31,833 nucleotides of DNA from positions 1 to 31,833 of the IMG/VR virus record IMGVR_UViG_3300005882_000012. The stretch is one strand, 5' to 3'. The notes below the pieces were generated by a model. That model was not told where the DNA came from. It made no database searches and saw only the letters and a list, made by a program, of their open reading frames with translations. The stretch comes from a virus. This document shows, in pieces, positions 34 to 4,887 of the stretch. Position numbers and translations under genes: made by a program. Position 1 is the stretch's first letter; each line of letters starts with the position of its first letter.

Positions 34-426
34 ATGGAATTTGCCGAAATCATTAAAAAAACTCAATTAAAGACTGTTTGCAAGGCAATTGATGCCTTTG
101 GTCCGGATTTTTTGGACGCCGATGTTTGCCGAAAATTTGTTTTCAAATATTTGCATCCGGAAGGCGCCAGGTGTCCGGAATGCGGCGCGGGGCTGGATGA
201 GACGAAGTCGTCACGGTTTTGGCAGGGAAAAGCCGTAAAATGCCGGCAATGCGGAAAAACTTTTACCATACGCACTGGCACCGCCCTGGCCGGCAAGGGG
301 TTGTCCGTCCAGGAAATCGTTTTGATGCTCTGGTTATTGTCCCGCGGGGAAACCGATATCCGGATTGCTAAAATAGTTGGTTGTAACCGGGAGACCGTCC
401 GCTTGTGGCGCCGGAAAACAACTTAA
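34..426 (+). CDS. Zinc-ribbon plus helix-turn-helix DNA-binding protein, putative phage regulator
   Basis: This 130-residue protein has two Cys pairs (C47/C50 in CPEC and C70/C73 in CRQC) that form a zinc ribbon of the type seen at the N-terminus of IS1595-like transposases and some phage regulators. A helix-turn-helix follows at about residues 91-127 (LSVQEIVLMLW, then IAKIVGCNRETVRLW). There is no transposase catalytic domain and there are no terminal repeats, so a stand-alone DNA-binding protein is the better reading. It is the first gene of a tightly spaced + strand run leading into the terminase genes, a place where late-gene activators or antiterminators often sit; that role is inferred from position alone. 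The ribosome-binding site is weak (CTGGAA). Confidence 0.6.
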   Translation: MEFAEIIKKTQLKTVCKAIDAFGPDFLDADVCRKFVFKYLHPEGARCPECGAGLDETKSSRFWQGKAVKCRQCGKTFTIRTGTALAGKGLSVQEIVLMLWLLSRGETDIRIAKIVGCNRETVRLWRRKTT

Positions 427-452: not shown

Positions 453-803
453 ATGAAAGTTGCTGTTTGCGGCCCAAGATGGGTTCAGAAAATTGACCTA
501 GAAAGTGTTCTGCCGGAAGCAACATCCACGATTGTTTCCGGAGGCGCCAGGGGCGTTGACACCCTGGCGGAAAATTTTGCCCGGCAGCGCGGGCTTAAAA
601 CGATCATCCATTATCCGGACTATAAGCGTTATGGCCGGCGGGCCCCGCTTGTTCGAAACTCCCTGATTGTTGGGGATGCCGATCAAGTGATCGCCTTCTG
701 GGACGGGGTTTCCCGCGGAACCCACGACACCATTAAGAAAGCAGAACGAAAAGGCAAACCTGTTCTGATTGTTTCTGTGGAGGTTGGGCGGAATGACGAA
801 TAA
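453..803 (+). CDS. Stand-alone SLOG-family (DUF2493/YspA-like) protein
   Basis: The protein is a 116-residue single Rossmann-like domain. It has VAVCGPRW at residues 3-10, the glycine-rich SGGARGVD at 29-36, RRAPLVRNSLIV at about 62-73, and AFWDG followed by RGT at 81-90. This is the pattern of the DprA/LOG/DUF2493 SLOG superfamily, whose members bind nucleotides or nucleotide-derived ligands. I chose ATG 453 because it has a good AAAAGGAG site 3-10 bases upstream; the longer frame from 405 would begin inside the previous gene. The stop overlaps the start of the next gene (ATG 793), and that gene contains further SLOG-like domains, so the two are probably co-translated and may work together. 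The ligand is unknown. Confidence 0.75.
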   Translation: MKVAVCGPRWVQKIDLESVLPEATSTIVSGGARGVDTLAENFARQRGLKTIIHYPDYKRYGRRAPLVRNSLIVGDADQVIAFWDGVSRGTHDTIKKAERKGKPVLIVSVEVGRNDE

Positions 804-1785
804 GTGCATGGTCTATGTTTGTTGTCCGTATTGGCATGAGGATGAAAGCGTCAGGAATTACCGCCGGCGCAAGGCCATTGAATATTCAACGGTCCTGGTT
901 AAAAAGGGTGTGCCCTGCTATTCGCCCCTGCTTTATACAGAGCGGTTCAAGAATGACAACACCAAGGAAGGCTATTGGATCGAGCACGGCCGCCGGATGC
1001 TCGATGCATGTGACGAAGTGCGCGTGTTATGCCTGGATGGCTGGGAAGAAAGCAATGGTGTGAAAGGCGAAATCCAGAGGGCTGAAGAGCTGGGCCTTGA
1101 AATCAAGTATATCGAAAAACACAGCCGACTGTCTTTCCATGGCAGCCGGACCCTGGTTGATTCAAAAACCCGCCGGGTCATTTTGACAGAAATTGAAAAG
1201 CACCAGCCCGAAACCATTGTCACCCATGGAGAACCAGAGGGCGCCTGTGCTCTTGCCAGGGAGATAAGCAGAAAAGAGGGAATCCCTTTAAAGCTCCATC
1301 ATCTGCAGCACAAGTACCTGGCAGGGCAATTTCATCATCGGTCAGTGGCTGTTTTGGAAGACTGCGATCATGCCATATTCCTTCACGATGGCATAAGTCA
1401 GGGATGCAGCAATGAACTGGTTTTAGCCCGTAAAATGGGTATTCCCTATACCTATTATGTTCTGGAAAACGGAGTCCTGGTCCAGCGCGATGCCGAGGAT
1501 CTGGCCAGCCAGGATATTGGGGTTGATCTGCTGGGGGACCAGTATGAGGCAAAGCTGGATCAATCAGCCAGAAAAACCCCGGAGTACAGAAAGTTTGTCA
1601 AGGCGGTTCTGGAACGGGACAATTACACCTGTCAGTTTTGCGGATCCAAGGAAAACTATACGGTTCATCATCTTATACCATTTTCCAAGCATAATGAGCT
1701 AGCATTAGATCCCACCAATGGGCAAACACTTTGCAAAGACTGTCATGAGGGAGTCCATGGAAAGAGACGATACAAACGAGCCTAA
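793..1785 (+). CDS. SLOG-like / SLOG-like / HNH endonuclease fusion protein
   Basis: This 330-residue protein has three parts. Residues 1-110 (MVYVCCPYW, then LDGWEESNGVKGEIQRAEELG) look like the DUF1937/DUF4406 group of small Rossmann proteins. Residues about 111-237 form a second SLOG-like domain (SFHGSRTLV, ETIVTHGEPEGA, HHRSVAVLEDCDHAIFLHDG). Residues about 262-325 are an HNH nuclease with ERDNYTCQFCG, the catalytic-type VHHLIPFSKHNE, and a second zinc knuckle LCKDC. ATG 793 is preceded by GGAGGT at 779-784 and overlaps the upstream SLOG gene. HNH proteins beside terminases are commonly needed for packaging in lambda/HK97-type phages. The two extra ligand-binding-type domains are unusual and suggest a regulated nuclease. 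The domain assignments come from motif reading only. Confidence 0.7.
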   Translation: MTNKCMVYVCCPYWHEDESVRNYRRRKAIEYSTVLVKKGVPCYSPLLYTERFKNDNTKEGYWIEHGRRMLDACDEVRVLCLDGWEESNGVKGEIQRAEELGLEIKYIEKHSRLSFHGSRTLVDSKTRRVILTEIEKHQPETIVTHGEPEGACALAREISRKEGIPLKLHHLQHKYLAGQFHHRSVAVLEDCDHAIFLHDGISQGCSNELVLARKMGIPYTYYVLENGVLVQRDAEDLASQDIGVDLLGDQYEAKLDQSARKTPEYRKFVKAVLERDNYTCQFCGSKENYTVHHLIPFSKHNELALDPTNGQTLCKDCHEGVHGKRRYKRA

Positions 1786-2212
1786 CAAGGAAGTTATTGG
1801 CAAGATAGCCGGCTATATGCGAGTTGGGGCTGATTTCTTTTTGGCTGCTGCCGCCTGCGGGATTTCTGAACGGGTCGCAGTGGAATGGAAAGAAAAGGCC
1901 TTGGCCGCTGAAAGGCAAAATGCCGGGGATGTTTACCAGGAGTTATACGAGGCAGTCAGACAAGCCCAGGCCCATGCCGAGGTGATAGCCCTGCAGCGAT
2001 TGTCTGCAGAGGGCGGCAGTGCCGGGGCTAAATGGCTTTTGGAGAAAATGAACCCGGACAAATACGGCAAGGCCGGCAGTAAGAAGCCGGATGAGGGAAA
2101 AGGAGTCCAGCAGGGGGACATCAAGAAGGTAAACGACGCCGGTGGCCTGGAACAAATAACCTGGGAAACCCTTGAAGATGGCGAAAACGCCGGGGACTGC
2201 CTTGCAGAATAA
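1757..2212 (+). CDS. HTH protein resembling phage terminase small subunits
   Basis: The protein has 151 residues from ATG 1757, which follows GAGGGA at 1747-1752 and overlaps the end of the HNH gene. The N-terminal part (FFLAAAACGISERVAVEWKEK) is a homeodomain-like HTH. The middle (AQAHAEVIALQRLSAEGG, then AKWLLEKMNPDKYGK) has the motif typical of proteins annotated as phage terminase small subunits or HTH proteins beside terminases. The acidic tail (ETLEDGENAGD) shows no motif. The next gene has a better Nu1-type signature, so this one may be an accessory DNA-recognition factor rather than the main small subunit. The stop overlaps the following gene by 35 bases. Confidence 0.55.
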   Translation: MERDDTNEPNKEVIGKIAGYMRVGADFFLAAAACGISERVAVEWKEKALAAERQNAGDVYQELYEAVRQAQAHAEVIALQRLSAEGGSAGAKWLLEKMNPDKYGKAGSKKPDEGKGVQQGDIKKVNDAGGLEQITWETLEDGENAGDCLAE

Positions 2213-2951
2213 AGTCGAAAAACTGCTGGAAATTGTCACGGATACTGAAAAGACGGAATTGACCGTCTTAAACAATGCCGTGGTCAAAAACATCCGCGCT
2301 TATCGGGCGGATCCTTCGGCCGCAAATAAAAAGAACTGGGATGCGGCACAAGAGGGGTTTGATAACCGGGTCAGGCAGTTATGGGAAAAGTATTTTGAGG
2401 ATGAAGAAGCCGAAGAGGCTTCAAAGTTAAAAAACATCCCTGCAGTGGTTGACTATCTCGACGGTCAGGGCTGGAAAATTTCCAAGTCTGCCGCTTACAA
2501 GCACAAAAAGGAAGGCAAACTTCGGCCAGGATCAGACGGCCGGTTTTCCTTCAGATCTGTTGACAAGTACGCCAGGCAGTGGCTGGAAAAAAAGGACGGT
2601 TCTGAAAGCGAATCAGCAGAAGATTTGCAGGCGCAAAAAGCCCAGGCAGAATTAGAAAAGATCAAGGCCCAGGCTCGACACTGGGATACGAAAACAAAAA
2701 TCGAACTGGGCCAGTATGTTCCGCGGGAAGACTGGGACCGGGAACTTGCCGCCAGGGCCCGGGTATTTAAATCCGACATTGAAAATTTCATCCGGACCGA
2801 GGCAACCGAAGTGATCCGGATTGTCAACGGCGATCCTGACAAAGCACCGGATCTGATTGAATACTATTTACGCCAGGCTGAAACCTGGATGAACCGATAC
2901 ACCCAGGAAAAAACCTGGAAAGTCACGGGAGGTGAAAATGAACACAGCTGA
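2178..2951 (+). CDS. Terminase small subunit, Nu1-like
   Basis: The protein has 257 residues from ATG 2178 (a TTG lies two codons earlier). Residues about 85-140 contain a winged-helix-type segment, AVVDYLDGQGWKISKSAAYK followed by KLRPGSDGRFSFRSVDKYAR. This matches the N-terminal DNA-binding domain of lambda Nu1-type small terminases, which recognise the packaging site. A charged helix (QAQKAQAELEKIKAQARHWD) and an assembly/TerL-contact-type region (PREDWDRELAARARVF) follow, as in this family. The reading frame runs into the large-subunit gene with a 14-base overlap, the usual coupling of small and large terminase genes. Confidence 0.75.
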   Translation: MAKTPGTALQNKVEKLLEIVTDTEKTELTVLNNAVVKNIRAYRADPSAANKKNWDAAQEGFDNRVRQLWEKYFEDEEAEEASKLKNIPAVVDYLDGQGWKISKSAAYKHKKEGKLRPGSDGRFSFRSVDKYARQWLEKKDGSESESAEDLQAQKAQAELEKIKAQARHWDTKTKIELGQYVPREDWDRELAARARVFKSDIENFIRTEATEVIRIVNGDPDKAPDLIEYYLRQAETWMNRYTQEKTWKVTGGENEHS

Positions 2952-4887
2952 AGATTTGACTGCTGCCGAATACGAGTTTGAGTTCACCAAGGCTGAAAAG
3001 CGGGTTTTCCGGGCAAAAGAAAACCTTACGGTATCCGAACATGCTGAAAAGTTCAGGGAAGTCACCCGGGGTCCATGGAAAGGGCCATGGCGGAATGAAA
3101 ATACAGAGTATTGCCGCTTTCCCATGGACCTTTTTAACAAGCCGTCTGTCAGGCGGATTTATATGTGCTGGGCGCCCCAGACAGGCAAAACCCAGGTAGG
3201 GGCAAACTGTCTGGACTATGTGATTGATCAGGATCCGGACACGGCATTTTATGTCATGGCCTCGGAGTCCACTGCAAAGCGGATTGCCAAGCGGCAGTTA
3301 ATTCCCATGTTTCGGGCCCATCGCCGGGTATCAAAGCTTTTGTCCCGGCGCGCCGATGATACCTCCACGCTTTCGGTAAGCTTTCAAAACGGAATGGATT
3401 TGTTGCTGGCCTGGGCTTCGTCTGTTTCCGCCCTGGCCTCAGAGTCTGCCCGGTATATGTTTTTTGATGAAGTCGATAAATACTGGCCCAGGATCAACCT
3501 TTCCCTGGGTGACCAGCGGACAAACGCCTATCCGTTTACCAAAAAGCTGCTTTATTTCACCACGCCGGAAGACACGGAAGCCCCGATTACGCAGTTGATC
3601 CGCTACGAAGCCGATCTTCTGTATATCTATCATGCGGTATGCCCCATGTGCGGTCATTTCCAGCGCATGATTTTTGACAATATCAAATGGCCTTCGGAAA
3701 TCAGGGATTTCCGCAAAATTGAAAACAGGAAGCTGGCTTATTATATCTGCGAGTCTTGCGGTATGGGCTGGAATGACAGCCACAGAAACATGGCGGTTAA
3801 ACGCGGTGGATGGGTCCCTTATCATCATGACAGTGACTGGCCGGATGGAAAGCTTTGTCCCATGGAACCCGATGAAGTTCCGGAAAGACCCGAAAATGTG
3901 GCACTGCACCTGCCGGCCTGGTATTCGCCTTTTGTGTCTTTGTCTGAAAACGCCGGCATGTTTTTGCGCGGCCTGGCTGATCCGGAAAAGCTGCAGATCT
4001 TTGTCACCCAGTATAAGGCAGAGCCCTGGAAACAAACCGTATCCGAGCTGACCGAAGACAAGATCCTGGCCGCCAAGGTTAAGAACCTGGATGCGCAATA
4101 TGTCCCGGAAAGCGCTGTTGCGCTTACCTGCGGAATTGATGTCCAGAAGTACGGGTTCTGGTTTTTGGTGCGCGCATGGGCCCGGGATTATACCAACTGG
4201 TTAATCCATTACGGATTTCTTTCATCATGGGCAGAGATCGAGGATCTTTTATTCATGCGCGAATACCCCCGGATCGATGGCGGCCAGGGCTTGCGGATCT
4301 GGCGGGCGGGCTTTGATACCGGCGGTGGAAAATACCAGGAAGAATATTCTTCGGCCGAAAAAGTTTATTTCTGGATTCAGGAAAATCGAGGGCGCGGCTG
4401 CCAAATCTGGCCCACCAAGGGCGCAAGCCGGCCGCTTGCAACCAAGATTTCCATTGGAAAATCACAGGAAAGGGCGCCCAGCGGAAAAGCCATTCCCGGA
4501 GGCCTCCAGATCATCAGCCTGGATACCAACAAGTTAAAGGATCTTTACCACTTCAGGGTTGCCAAGGCTGTGGATGAAGGCGGGCCCATGTCTGCCTATC
4601 TGAACCAGGGGGTAGGCCGTGACTATTCAAGGCAGATCCTGGCCGAAGTCAAAGAAAAACAAAAAAACGGAACCGAAGCCTGGGTGCAGAAGGCCCGGGA
4701 CAATCACCTGTTTGACTGCGAGGTGATTGCCCATGCCCTGGCTGACCCGGAATGGCCCGGCGGCGGGGTGCATCTGCTGTCTGATTTGGCAGACGACGCC
4801 CCGGCTCCCAGAAGGCCAGCACAACAGGTAAACCCGCGCGACCGGGCCACGGCAATACGAGAACGAATCCGAAACAACCGAAGATAA
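2938..4887 (+). CDS. Terminase large subunit, GpA family
   Basis: This 649-residue packaging motor follows the lambda gpA plan. The N-terminal ATPase has a Walker A-like APQTGKT at about 79-85 and a Walker B YMFFDE at 173-178. A zinc-binding insertion follows, with CPMC and, about 50 residues on, CESC. The C-terminal nuclease region has acidic candidates in ALTCGIDVQ, AGFDTGGGKY and HLFDCEVIAHAL. The family translocates concatemeric DNA into proheads and cuts it at cos or pac sites. I chose ATG 2938 because a near-perfect GGAGGTGA precedes it; an in-frame GTG at 2932 lies inside that ribosome-binding site. Length is close to lambda gpA (641 residues). No frameshift is seen. Confidence 0.95.
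   Translation: MNTAEDLTAAEYEFEFTKAEKRVFRAKENLTVSEHAEKFREVTRGPWKGPWRNENTEYCRFPMDLFNKPSVRRIYMCWAPQTGKTQVGANCLDYVIDQDPDTAFYVMASESTAKRIAKRQLIPMFRAHRRVSKLLSRRADDTSTLSVSFQNGMDLLLAWASSVSALASESARYMFFDEVDKYWPRINLSLGDQRTNAYPFTKKLLYFTTPEDTEAPITQLIRYEADLLYIYHAVCPMCGHFQRMIFDNIKWPSEIRDFRKIENRKLAYYICESCGMGWNDSHRNMAVKRGGWVPYHHDSDWPDGKLCPMEPDEVPERPENVALHLPAWYSPFVSLSENAGMFLRGLADPEKLQIFVTQYKAEPWKQTVSELTEDKILAAKVKNLDAQYVPESAVALTCGIDVQKYGFWFLVRAWARDYTNWLIHYGFLSSWAEIEDLLFMREYPRIDGGQGLRIWRAGFDTGGGKYQEEYSSAEKVYFWIQENRGRGCQIWPTKGASRPLATKISIGKSQERAPSGKAIPGGLQIISLDTNKLKDLYHFRVAKAVDEGGPMSAYLNQGVGRDYSRQILAEVKEKQKNGTEAWVQKARDNHLFDCEVIAHALADPEWPGGGVHLLSDLADDAPAPRRPAQQVNPRDRATAIRERIRNNRR

What the first reader, a model, noticed from the sequence alone, without database searches (positions are those of the whole stretch)
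793..1785. Two SLOG-like domains fused to an HNH nuclease
One ORF joins a DUF1937-like domain, a second SLOG-like domain and an HNH nuclease with complete zinc knuckles and HH motif. Known: SLOG domains sense nucleotide-derived signals in defence systems such as Thoeris and are effector-linked in predicted conflict systems; HNH proteins next to terminases assist DNA packaging. A ligand-gated HNH could tie packaging or degradation of DNA to a nucleotide signal, for example as an anti-defence sink or a phage-phage conflict nuclease.
Basis: partly seen in the sequence, partly recalled or inferred. Interest (0 to 1): 0.7.

Follow-up and report, generated by a model that had tools for sequence, protein, structure and literature searches.

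The report
Terminase-linked SLOG–NDT–HNH fusion protein
A virus, probably of sulfate-reducing-type bacteria, carries directly before its DNA-packaging genes one protein that joins a nucleotide-cutting-type domain, a SLOG nucleotide-binding-type domain and a DNA-cutting HNH domain; its SLOG domain belongs to an unnamed family found beside packaging genes in 31 of 34 distinct viral sequence clusters, which points to an uncharacterised accessory of phage DNA packaging.

Summary
ORF 793-1785 (330 aa) encodes three domains. D1 (res. 6-107) is DUF7768/DUF1937, with a nucleoside deoxyribosyltransferase/DNPH1 fold rather than a SLOG proper. D2 (111-226) is a true SLOG fold. The HNH (257-327) has intact motifs. 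A homologue in another phage differs by 7% in DNA, yet D1 and D2 have no amino-acid change (gene dN/dS about 0.01), so all three parts are selected. The triple fusion is rare: two close copies plus a truncated 67%-identical one.

D2 defines a SLOG subfamily ('tSLOG') with an invariant DGxSxG...E signature. Of 34 distinct tSLOGs (90% clusters), 31 lie at TerS/TerL: often overlapping TerS, sometimes between TerS and TerL, once (L062) fused to an HTH protein in the TerS position. The terminases are of about four types. Canonical YAcAr SLOGs show this in 1 of 13 loci. Neighbours include Mom, TET-associated glycosyltransferase, ParB-methylase, radical SAM and nucleases.

Best reading: a packaging-operon accessory nuclease (HK97 gp74-like) whose SLOG/NDT domains bind or process a nucleotide or modified base. 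Anatomy is secure; mechanism is inferred. Sporadic phage SLOG-HNH fusions are already published; I found no report of the terminase link.

The parts
793..1785 (+). Fusion ORF, 330 aa: NDT/DNPH1-like domain, terminase-associated SLOG domain, HNH nuclease
   Evidence: dN/dS
808..1113 (+). Domain 1 (res. 6-107): DUF7768/DUF1937/DUF4406; nucleoside deoxyribosyltransferase/DNPH1 fold; R24, S87, G89, E93 invariant and Y8 nearly so
1123..1470 (+). Domain 2 (res. 111-226): SLOG fold, tSLOG subfamily; invariant R183, D199, G200, S202, G204, E208
1504..1554 (+). Linker (about res. 238-254), low model confidence, probably flexible
   Evidence: model residues 137-153 have pLDDT under 50
1561..1773 (+). 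HNH nuclease domain (res. 257-327): two CxxC knuckles, HH 292-293, N309, H318/H322
453..803 (+). Stand-alone canonical YAcAr SLOG protein; overlaps the start of the fusion ORF
   Evidence: (PF10686, 38.8 bits against 28.2)
1745..2212 (+). TerS1: terminase small subunit-type protein (PHROG 4102), overlaps the end of the fusion ORF; start could also be 1757
2178..2951 (+). TerS2: terminase small subunit of the gpA-type system (PHROG 57)
2938..4887 (+). TerL: gpA-type terminase large subunit
34..426 (+). Zn-ribbon/HTH protein; marks the left edge of the pre-terminase cargo slot in relatives

Best explanation
The ORF encodes an accessory protein of the phage packaging operon. The C-terminal HNH would nick or cut phage DNA together with the terminase, as HK97 gp74 stimulates cos cleavage. 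The SLOG domain (tSLOG) is the part that ties it to the terminase: it belongs to a subfamily that sits beside terminase genes and is once fused to an HTH protein in the TerS position. It and the NDT/DNPH1-like domain bind, and probably hydrolyse or exchange, an N-glycosidic bond in a nucleotide or modified base, since both keep a catalytic-type glutamate (E93, E208). Cutting or packaging would thereby be tuned to a nucleotide state or to the modification state of the DNA. Shown: domains, folds, conserved residues, selection on all three parts, operon, and terminase association of the subfamily. Inferred: physical contact with terminase, catalysis by D1 or D2, and control of the HNH by them.
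For: Overlapping gene order SLOG-fusion-TerS1-TerS2-TerL. 31 of 34 tSLOG clusters have TerS and/or TerL adjacent or within about 3.5 kb, against TerL in 1 of 13 canonical YAcAr loci, Fisher p 1e-7. tSLOG lies between TerS and TerL in L085 and L089, and in L062 is one ORF with an HTH domain directly before TerL. tSLOGs in one supported clade sit with three TerL types. R, E and the DGxSxG loop are kept in all tSLOGs wherever covered. Strong purifying selection on D1, D2 and HNH. HK97 gp74 precedent: a phage-encoded HNH protein promotes cos cleavage in a reconstituted packaging system (PMC9410871). L195 has separate D1-type and tSLOG genes in the same primase-ZnHTH-TerS2 arrangement.
Against: Relatives with 66-77% identical TerL lack the gene at the same position, so it is not essential for that terminase. 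Most tSLOG loci have no HNH detected nearby, so the nuclease is not a fixed partner. The slot before TerS is a general cargo site in these phages, so position alone may overstate a functional tie. No interaction or activity has been measured.
Confidence: 0.42

Rival explanations
1. It is part of a DNA-modification or self/non-self module that happens to lie before the terminase. The NDT/SLOG domains recognise or process modified bases or nucleotides, and the HNH cuts DNA lacking or bearing the modification (host or competitor DNA).
For: tSLOG neighbours include Mom (L092, L095), TET-associated glycosyltransferase (L057, L090), ParB_N + N6/N4 methylase (L080), radical SAM (L056) and DUF5131 (L092). 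Neighbours of D1-type genes are often DNA methyltransferases (14 of 99 scanned) or ParB-like proteins. D1 resembles DNPH1, solved with 5hm-dUMP.
Against: No modification enzyme is recognised beside the fusion in this phage itself. Many tSLOG loci lack such neighbours on the DNA held. Modification genes are commonly placed before terminases for other reasons (own knowledge).
Confidence: 0.25
2. Counter-defence or conflict protein: the SLOG/NDT domains sense or destroy NAD- or ADPr-derived immune signals and the HNH is the effector, as proposed for sporadic phage SLOG fusions by Iyer, Burroughs and Aravind 2022.
For: Published precedent for phage SLOG-HNH fusions and that prediction (PMC9503650). 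D1 fold lies near TIR/ThsB and D2 fold matches the ThsA SLOG. A D1 homologue lies beside PnuC and nicotinamide riboside kinase genes in Caulobacter phage BL47.
Against: No Macro, NADAR, SIR2 or Nudix partner among the genes scanned near the fusion. D2 is closer to YpsA, DprA and LOG than to ThsA. The terminase linkage is not explained by signal sensing.
Confidence: 0.2
3. Fusion and TerS1 are a mobile DNA-targeting pair: TerS1 binds a DNA site and the HNH cuts there, either to spread the cassette or to redirect or sabotage packaging of a competing phage.
For: Fusion and TerS1 occur together (window, L021, L037) and are absent together in relatives. TerS1 (PHROG 4102) is of a different family from the terminase's own TerS2; in L055 a tSLOG sits with a TerS that also hits PHROG 4102 and with a different TerL. 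The cassette is 93% identical in two otherwise different phages.
Against: The constraint on D1-D2 is stronger than a homing passenger would need. tSLOG mostly occurs alone, without TerS1 or HNH.
Confidence: 0.1

Closest known systems
Phage SLOG-HNH and SLOG-HTH fusions of Iyer, Burroughs and Aravind 2022 (PMC9503650, Fig. 5i)
   Same: A phage SLOG domain fused to an HNH nuclease or an HTH domain; predicted nucleotide-controlled DNA enzyme.
   Different: Described as sporadic and read as NAD/ADPr sensing; no terminase link is mentioned in the passages read. Here an NDT-like domain is added, and the SLOG belongs to a terminase-linked subfamily with a conserved glutamate.
HK97 gp74-type HNH packaging proteins
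   Same: HNH encoded next to terminase genes; gp74 stimulates cos cleavage (PMC9410871).
   Different: As far as known gp74 has no SLOG or NDT domain (own knowledge); here the terminase is gpA-type and relatives lack the HNH.
Nucleoside 2-deoxyribosyltransferase / DNPH1 / MilB family
   Same: Domain 1 has the fold and the conserved Tyr and Glu region.
   Different: Fused to SLOG and HNH; the rest of the pocket and the substrate are unknown; the closest structure is an uncharacterised protein, 1t1j.
YAcAr / DprA / LOG SLOG proteins
   Same: Domain 2 has the SLOG fold and shares the GSR loop, a conserved Arg and the DGxSxG loop with YAcAr.
   Different: Below the Pfam YAcAr threshold; has an invariant Glu that the YAcAr sequences aligned here lack, in a LOG-like layout (LOG motif from memory).
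Thoeris ThsA (SIR2-SLOG)
   Same: A SLOG domain joined to another domain; fold match Z 8.2.
   Different: No SIR2 NADase in the protein; closer to YpsA, DprA and LOG; phage gene in a packaging operon.

Membership tests
SLOG superfamily (domain 2) | SLOG Rossmann-type fold | tested here: met
   AlphaFold model realigned to YpsA Z 12.8 (119 aligned), DprA 11.9, LOG 10.7, ThsA SLOG 8.2
YAcAr (PF10686) | Pfam gathering score | tested here: not met
   12-14 bits against a cut-off of 28.2; a separate subfamily by profile
LOG-type nucleotide hydrolase | Conserved Arg and Glu of the active-site layout | tested here: inconclusive
   R183 and E208 invariant in the subfamily, but the PGGxGTxxE motif itself is HDGxSxG(T/C)xxE; correspondence is by layout from memory, not by superposition of residues
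NDT/DNPH1-like, DUF7768 (domain 1) | Profile above cut-off and matching fold | tested here: met
   DUF7768 55.7 bits against 26; 1t1j Z 16.1, NDT and DNPH1 Z 10-12
NDT/DNPH1-like, DUF7768 (domain 1) | Catalytic-type Glu kept | tested here: met
   E93 invariant in 46 sequences; its equivalence to the NDT nucleophile is from family knowledge
NDT/DNPH1-like, DUF7768 (domain 1) | N-glycosidic transferase or hydrolase activity | not testable with these tools
   needs an assay
HNH nuclease | HNH profile, HH...N...H motif and two CxxC knuckles | tested here: met
   PF01844 36.8 bits against 21.4; motif positions
HK97 gp74-type packaging HNH | Encoded with the terminase genes | tested here: met
   overlaps TerS1; TerS2 and TerL follow
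HK97 gp74-type packaging HNH | Stimulates terminase cleavage of packaging sites | not testable with these tools
   needs purified proteins; absence in related phages weighs against an essential role
Thoeris ThsA | SIR2 NADase domain joined to SLOG | tested here: not met
   No SIR2 family among Pfam or PADLOC hits listed for the protein

The most novel reading that the evidence does not exclude
tSLOG is a previously unnamed, widespread accessory subunit of tailed-phage packaging: a nucleotide- or modified-base-processing SLOG enzyme that partners with small terminase across unrelated terminase types. The focal protein is its form fused to an NDT-like domain and a nuclease.
Probability: 0.3. Interest if true: 0.85.

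Novelty: new variant of a known kind. Interest (0 to 1): 0.58.

Why it matters
SLOG domains are studied as sensors in bacterial immunity (Thoeris) and as cytokinin-type hydrolases. A SLOG subfamily bound to terminase genes across unrelated packaging machines would place nucleotide chemistry or sensing at the point where the phage selects and cuts its DNA. It makes a question testable: what licenses packaging (DNA modification state, nucleotide pool)? It also gives a clear family signature for annotation, since the stand-alone tSLOGs scanned against Pfam were recognised weakly or not at all.

Tried and rejected
The fusion was sought in phages, plasmids, GTDB genomes and 395 Desulfobacterota genomes: no full-length homologue beyond the two close copies; the genome-contig scan uses short back-translated patterns, so it reaches close relatives only. 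D2 and stand-alone tSLOG sequences against cultured-phage records: none clearly in the subfamily; the one weak hit, L096, scores as canonical. tSLOG profile in 395 Desulfobacterota genomes: two hits, both at canonical level. A combined full-length alignment for one structure job was dropped because domain-1 rows smeared over both Rossmann-type domains, so D1 and D2-HNH were modelled apart and their mutual arrangement is unknown. Foldseek alone ranked D2-HNH poorly (no match at E 0.001); the realignment was clearer. Rejected: 'only the HNH is conserved'; 'chance ORF'; 'homing HNH with a random N-terminus' (D1 and D2 are bona fide folds). Promoter and terminator scans gave nothing above shuffles. 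No paper linking a SLOG family to terminase was found, but only open-licence papers are held, and two papers I wanted (10.1093/nar/gkv1267 and 10.1093/nar/gkt573) were not available.

Full report
What is there. The window is a 31.8-kb IMG/VR virus record of a tailed phage with a tape-measure protein, portal, head maturation protease and a lambda-gpA-type terminase. Related terminases lie in genomes named Desulfobacteraceae, Desulforapulum, Desulfoluna and Desulfobacterium, and in one contig binned as Brocadiaceae, so the host is most likely a Desulfobacterota member (inference). The record starts just before a Zn-ribbon/HTH gene (34-426). Then follow, in overlapping frames, a canonical YAcAr SLOG protein (453-803), the fusion (793-1785), TerS1 (to 2212), TerS2 (2178-2951) and TerL (2938-4887). 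A longer record (L022, 100% identical over 7.5 kb) has a replication gene with primase-type features further upstream (my reading of the sequence).

Domains of the fusion. Residues 6-107 match DUF7768, DUF4406 and DUF1937 above cut-off and PHROG 355, 'nucleoside 2-deoxyribosyltransferase'. An AlphaFold model (pLDDT 87) matches 1t1j at Z 16.1, then deoxyribosyltransferases, DNPH1, MilB and TIR/ThsB at Z 10-12. R24, S87, G89 and E93 are invariant, and Y8 nearly so, in a 46-sequence alignment. D1 is NDT/DNPH1-like, a sister of SLOG rather than a SLOG proper. Residues 111-226 give only weak sequence hits (YAcAr 14 bits, PHROG 289 E 4e-7), but the model matches YpsA (Z 12.8), DprA (11.9) and LOG (10.7): a genuine SLOG. 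A linker at about residues 238-254 is predicted with low confidence. Residues 257-327 are an intact HNH matching GVE2 HNH 5h0m at Z 9.1.

Selection. In L021, an otherwise different phage, 2.9 kb of this cassette is 93% identical in DNA. The fusion shows dS 0.22 and dN 0.0026; residues 1-237 have 29 synonymous and no non-synonymous differences. TerS1 next to it shows dN 0.029. The nuclease is therefore not the only selected part. A third, contig-truncated copy (L037, 67% identical over residues 198-323) is followed by the same TerS1-TerS2-TerL order.

The SLOG subfamily. Scans with D2 profiles found stand-alone relatives, most at 32-61% identity. They form a family (A5) with a GSR loop, R76, D92-G93-x-S95-x-G97 and E101 (alignment numbering; R183, D199, G200, S202, G204 and E208 in the protein). 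These are kept in all 39 sequences wherever covered. A profile separates intact members (E 1e-32 or better) from canonical YAcAr (E 2e-17 or worse). The layout with a conserved Arg followed by HDGxSxGTxxE resembles the LOG layout R...PGGxGTxxE (comparison from memory), whereas the YAcAr sequences aligned lack the Glu. tSLOG is thus predicted to be catalytically equipped; this is inference.

Terminase linkage. Of 34 clusters (90% identity; the focal pair is one), 31 have TerS and/or TerL adjacent or within about 3.5 kb. Exceptions are L210, L212 and L213, with nothing found within 5 kb. In 13 canonical YAcAr loci with similar flanks, a clear TerL was found in one (only ORFs of 200 aa or more were scanned there, so weak cases could be missed); Fisher p 1e-7, or 4e-6 if only TerL is counted, with about 28 of 34. 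tSLOG commonly overlaps or abuts the TerS start (L055, L081, L195). It lies between TerS and TerL in L085 and L089, and in L062 it is one ORF with an HTH domain directly before TerL. The TerLs match gpA type (PHROG 15), PHROG 2/979/3717, PHROG 38 and PHROG 9. A tSLOG tree needs several terminase switches; within one supported clade of seven, three types occur. Some deep branches are weak. Caveat: the region before TerS is a cargo slot in these phages. Relatives of the focal phage carry there nothing (L024), a YAcAr SLOG with a phosphoribosyltransferase-type gene (L030), a ParB/methylase-type gene (L029) or a DUF5131-like gene (L028).

Neighbourhood chemistry. Near tSLOG genes lie Mom (L092, L095), TET-associated glycosyltransferase (L057 below cut-off, L090 above), ParB_N + N6/N4 methylase (L080), radical SAM (L056), DUF5131 (L092) and nucleases (HNH in L089 and L090, MTES_1575 REase in L081). 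D1 is a common phage domain (160 candidates, 80 loci kept), often next to DNA methyltransferases. In none of those loci other than the focal cassette was it found fused to SLOG or HNH. In L195 separate D1-type and tSLOG genes sit in the same primase / ZnHTH / TerS2 arrangement as the focal phage. The fusion therefore looks like a joining of genes that already shared one neighbourhood.

How it probably works. By the HK97 precedent, an HNH protein of the phage promotes cos cleavage (PMC9410871). I therefore favour an accessory packaging nuclease whose tSLOG docks on or near TerS and whose D1/D2 read or process a nucleotide or modified base. Docking, catalysis and gating are inferred. Absence of the gene in relatives with 66-77% identical TerL shows it is accessory. 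Rivals are a DNA-modification-linked nuclease, an NAD/ADPr-sensing conflict protein, and a mobile TerS1-nuclease pair.

Comparison with what is known. Sporadic phage fusions of SLOG to HTH and HNH are already described and interpreted as controlled by NAD/ADPr derivatives (PMC9503650), so the fusion principle is not new. I found no report of a terminase-bound SLOG subfamily or of the NDT-SLOG-HNH architecture, within the limits of an open-licence library. Hence 'new variant of a known kind'.

Noticed in passing
window 453-803; L030 4162-5078: A second, canonical YAcAr SLOG gene overlaps the fusion. In a related phage (L030) its 57%-identical homologue sits in the same slot beside a phosphoribosyltransferase-type gene instead of the fusion.
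   Followed up: partly
window 34-426: A Zn-ribbon/HTH protein of unknown function marks the left edge of the pre-terminase cargo slot in many related phages and prophages (37-100% identical); it also lies directly before a stand-alone tSLOG in L195 and L196.
   Followed up: partly
window 1745-2951: Two different small-terminase-type genes in one operon: TerS1 (PHROG 4102) and TerS2 (PHROG 57). Relatives without the fusion have only TerS2.
   Followed up: partly
L092 6721-7389; L095 427-1272: Mom-family DNA-modification genes lie in the same pre-terminase region as tSLOG genes.
   Followed up: partly
L051 260-1686 (Caulobacter phage BL47): A domain-1 homologue directly follows PnuC and ribosylnicotinamide kinase genes, suggesting some members of that family act in NAD salvage.
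   Followed up: no
L199 4048-4875, L200 2549-3376, L206 4057-4884; L056 4044-5249, L186 3281-4660: Radical-SAM-type genes recur just before tSLOG: one recognised by Pfam (L056), the others by eye from similar sequence or a CxxxCxxC-like motif.
   Followed up: partly
L186 5438-7732: A gpA-type TerL with an N-terminal extension of about 125 residues directly follows a tSLOG, with no separate TerS seen; possibly a TerS-TerL fusion.
   Followed up: no
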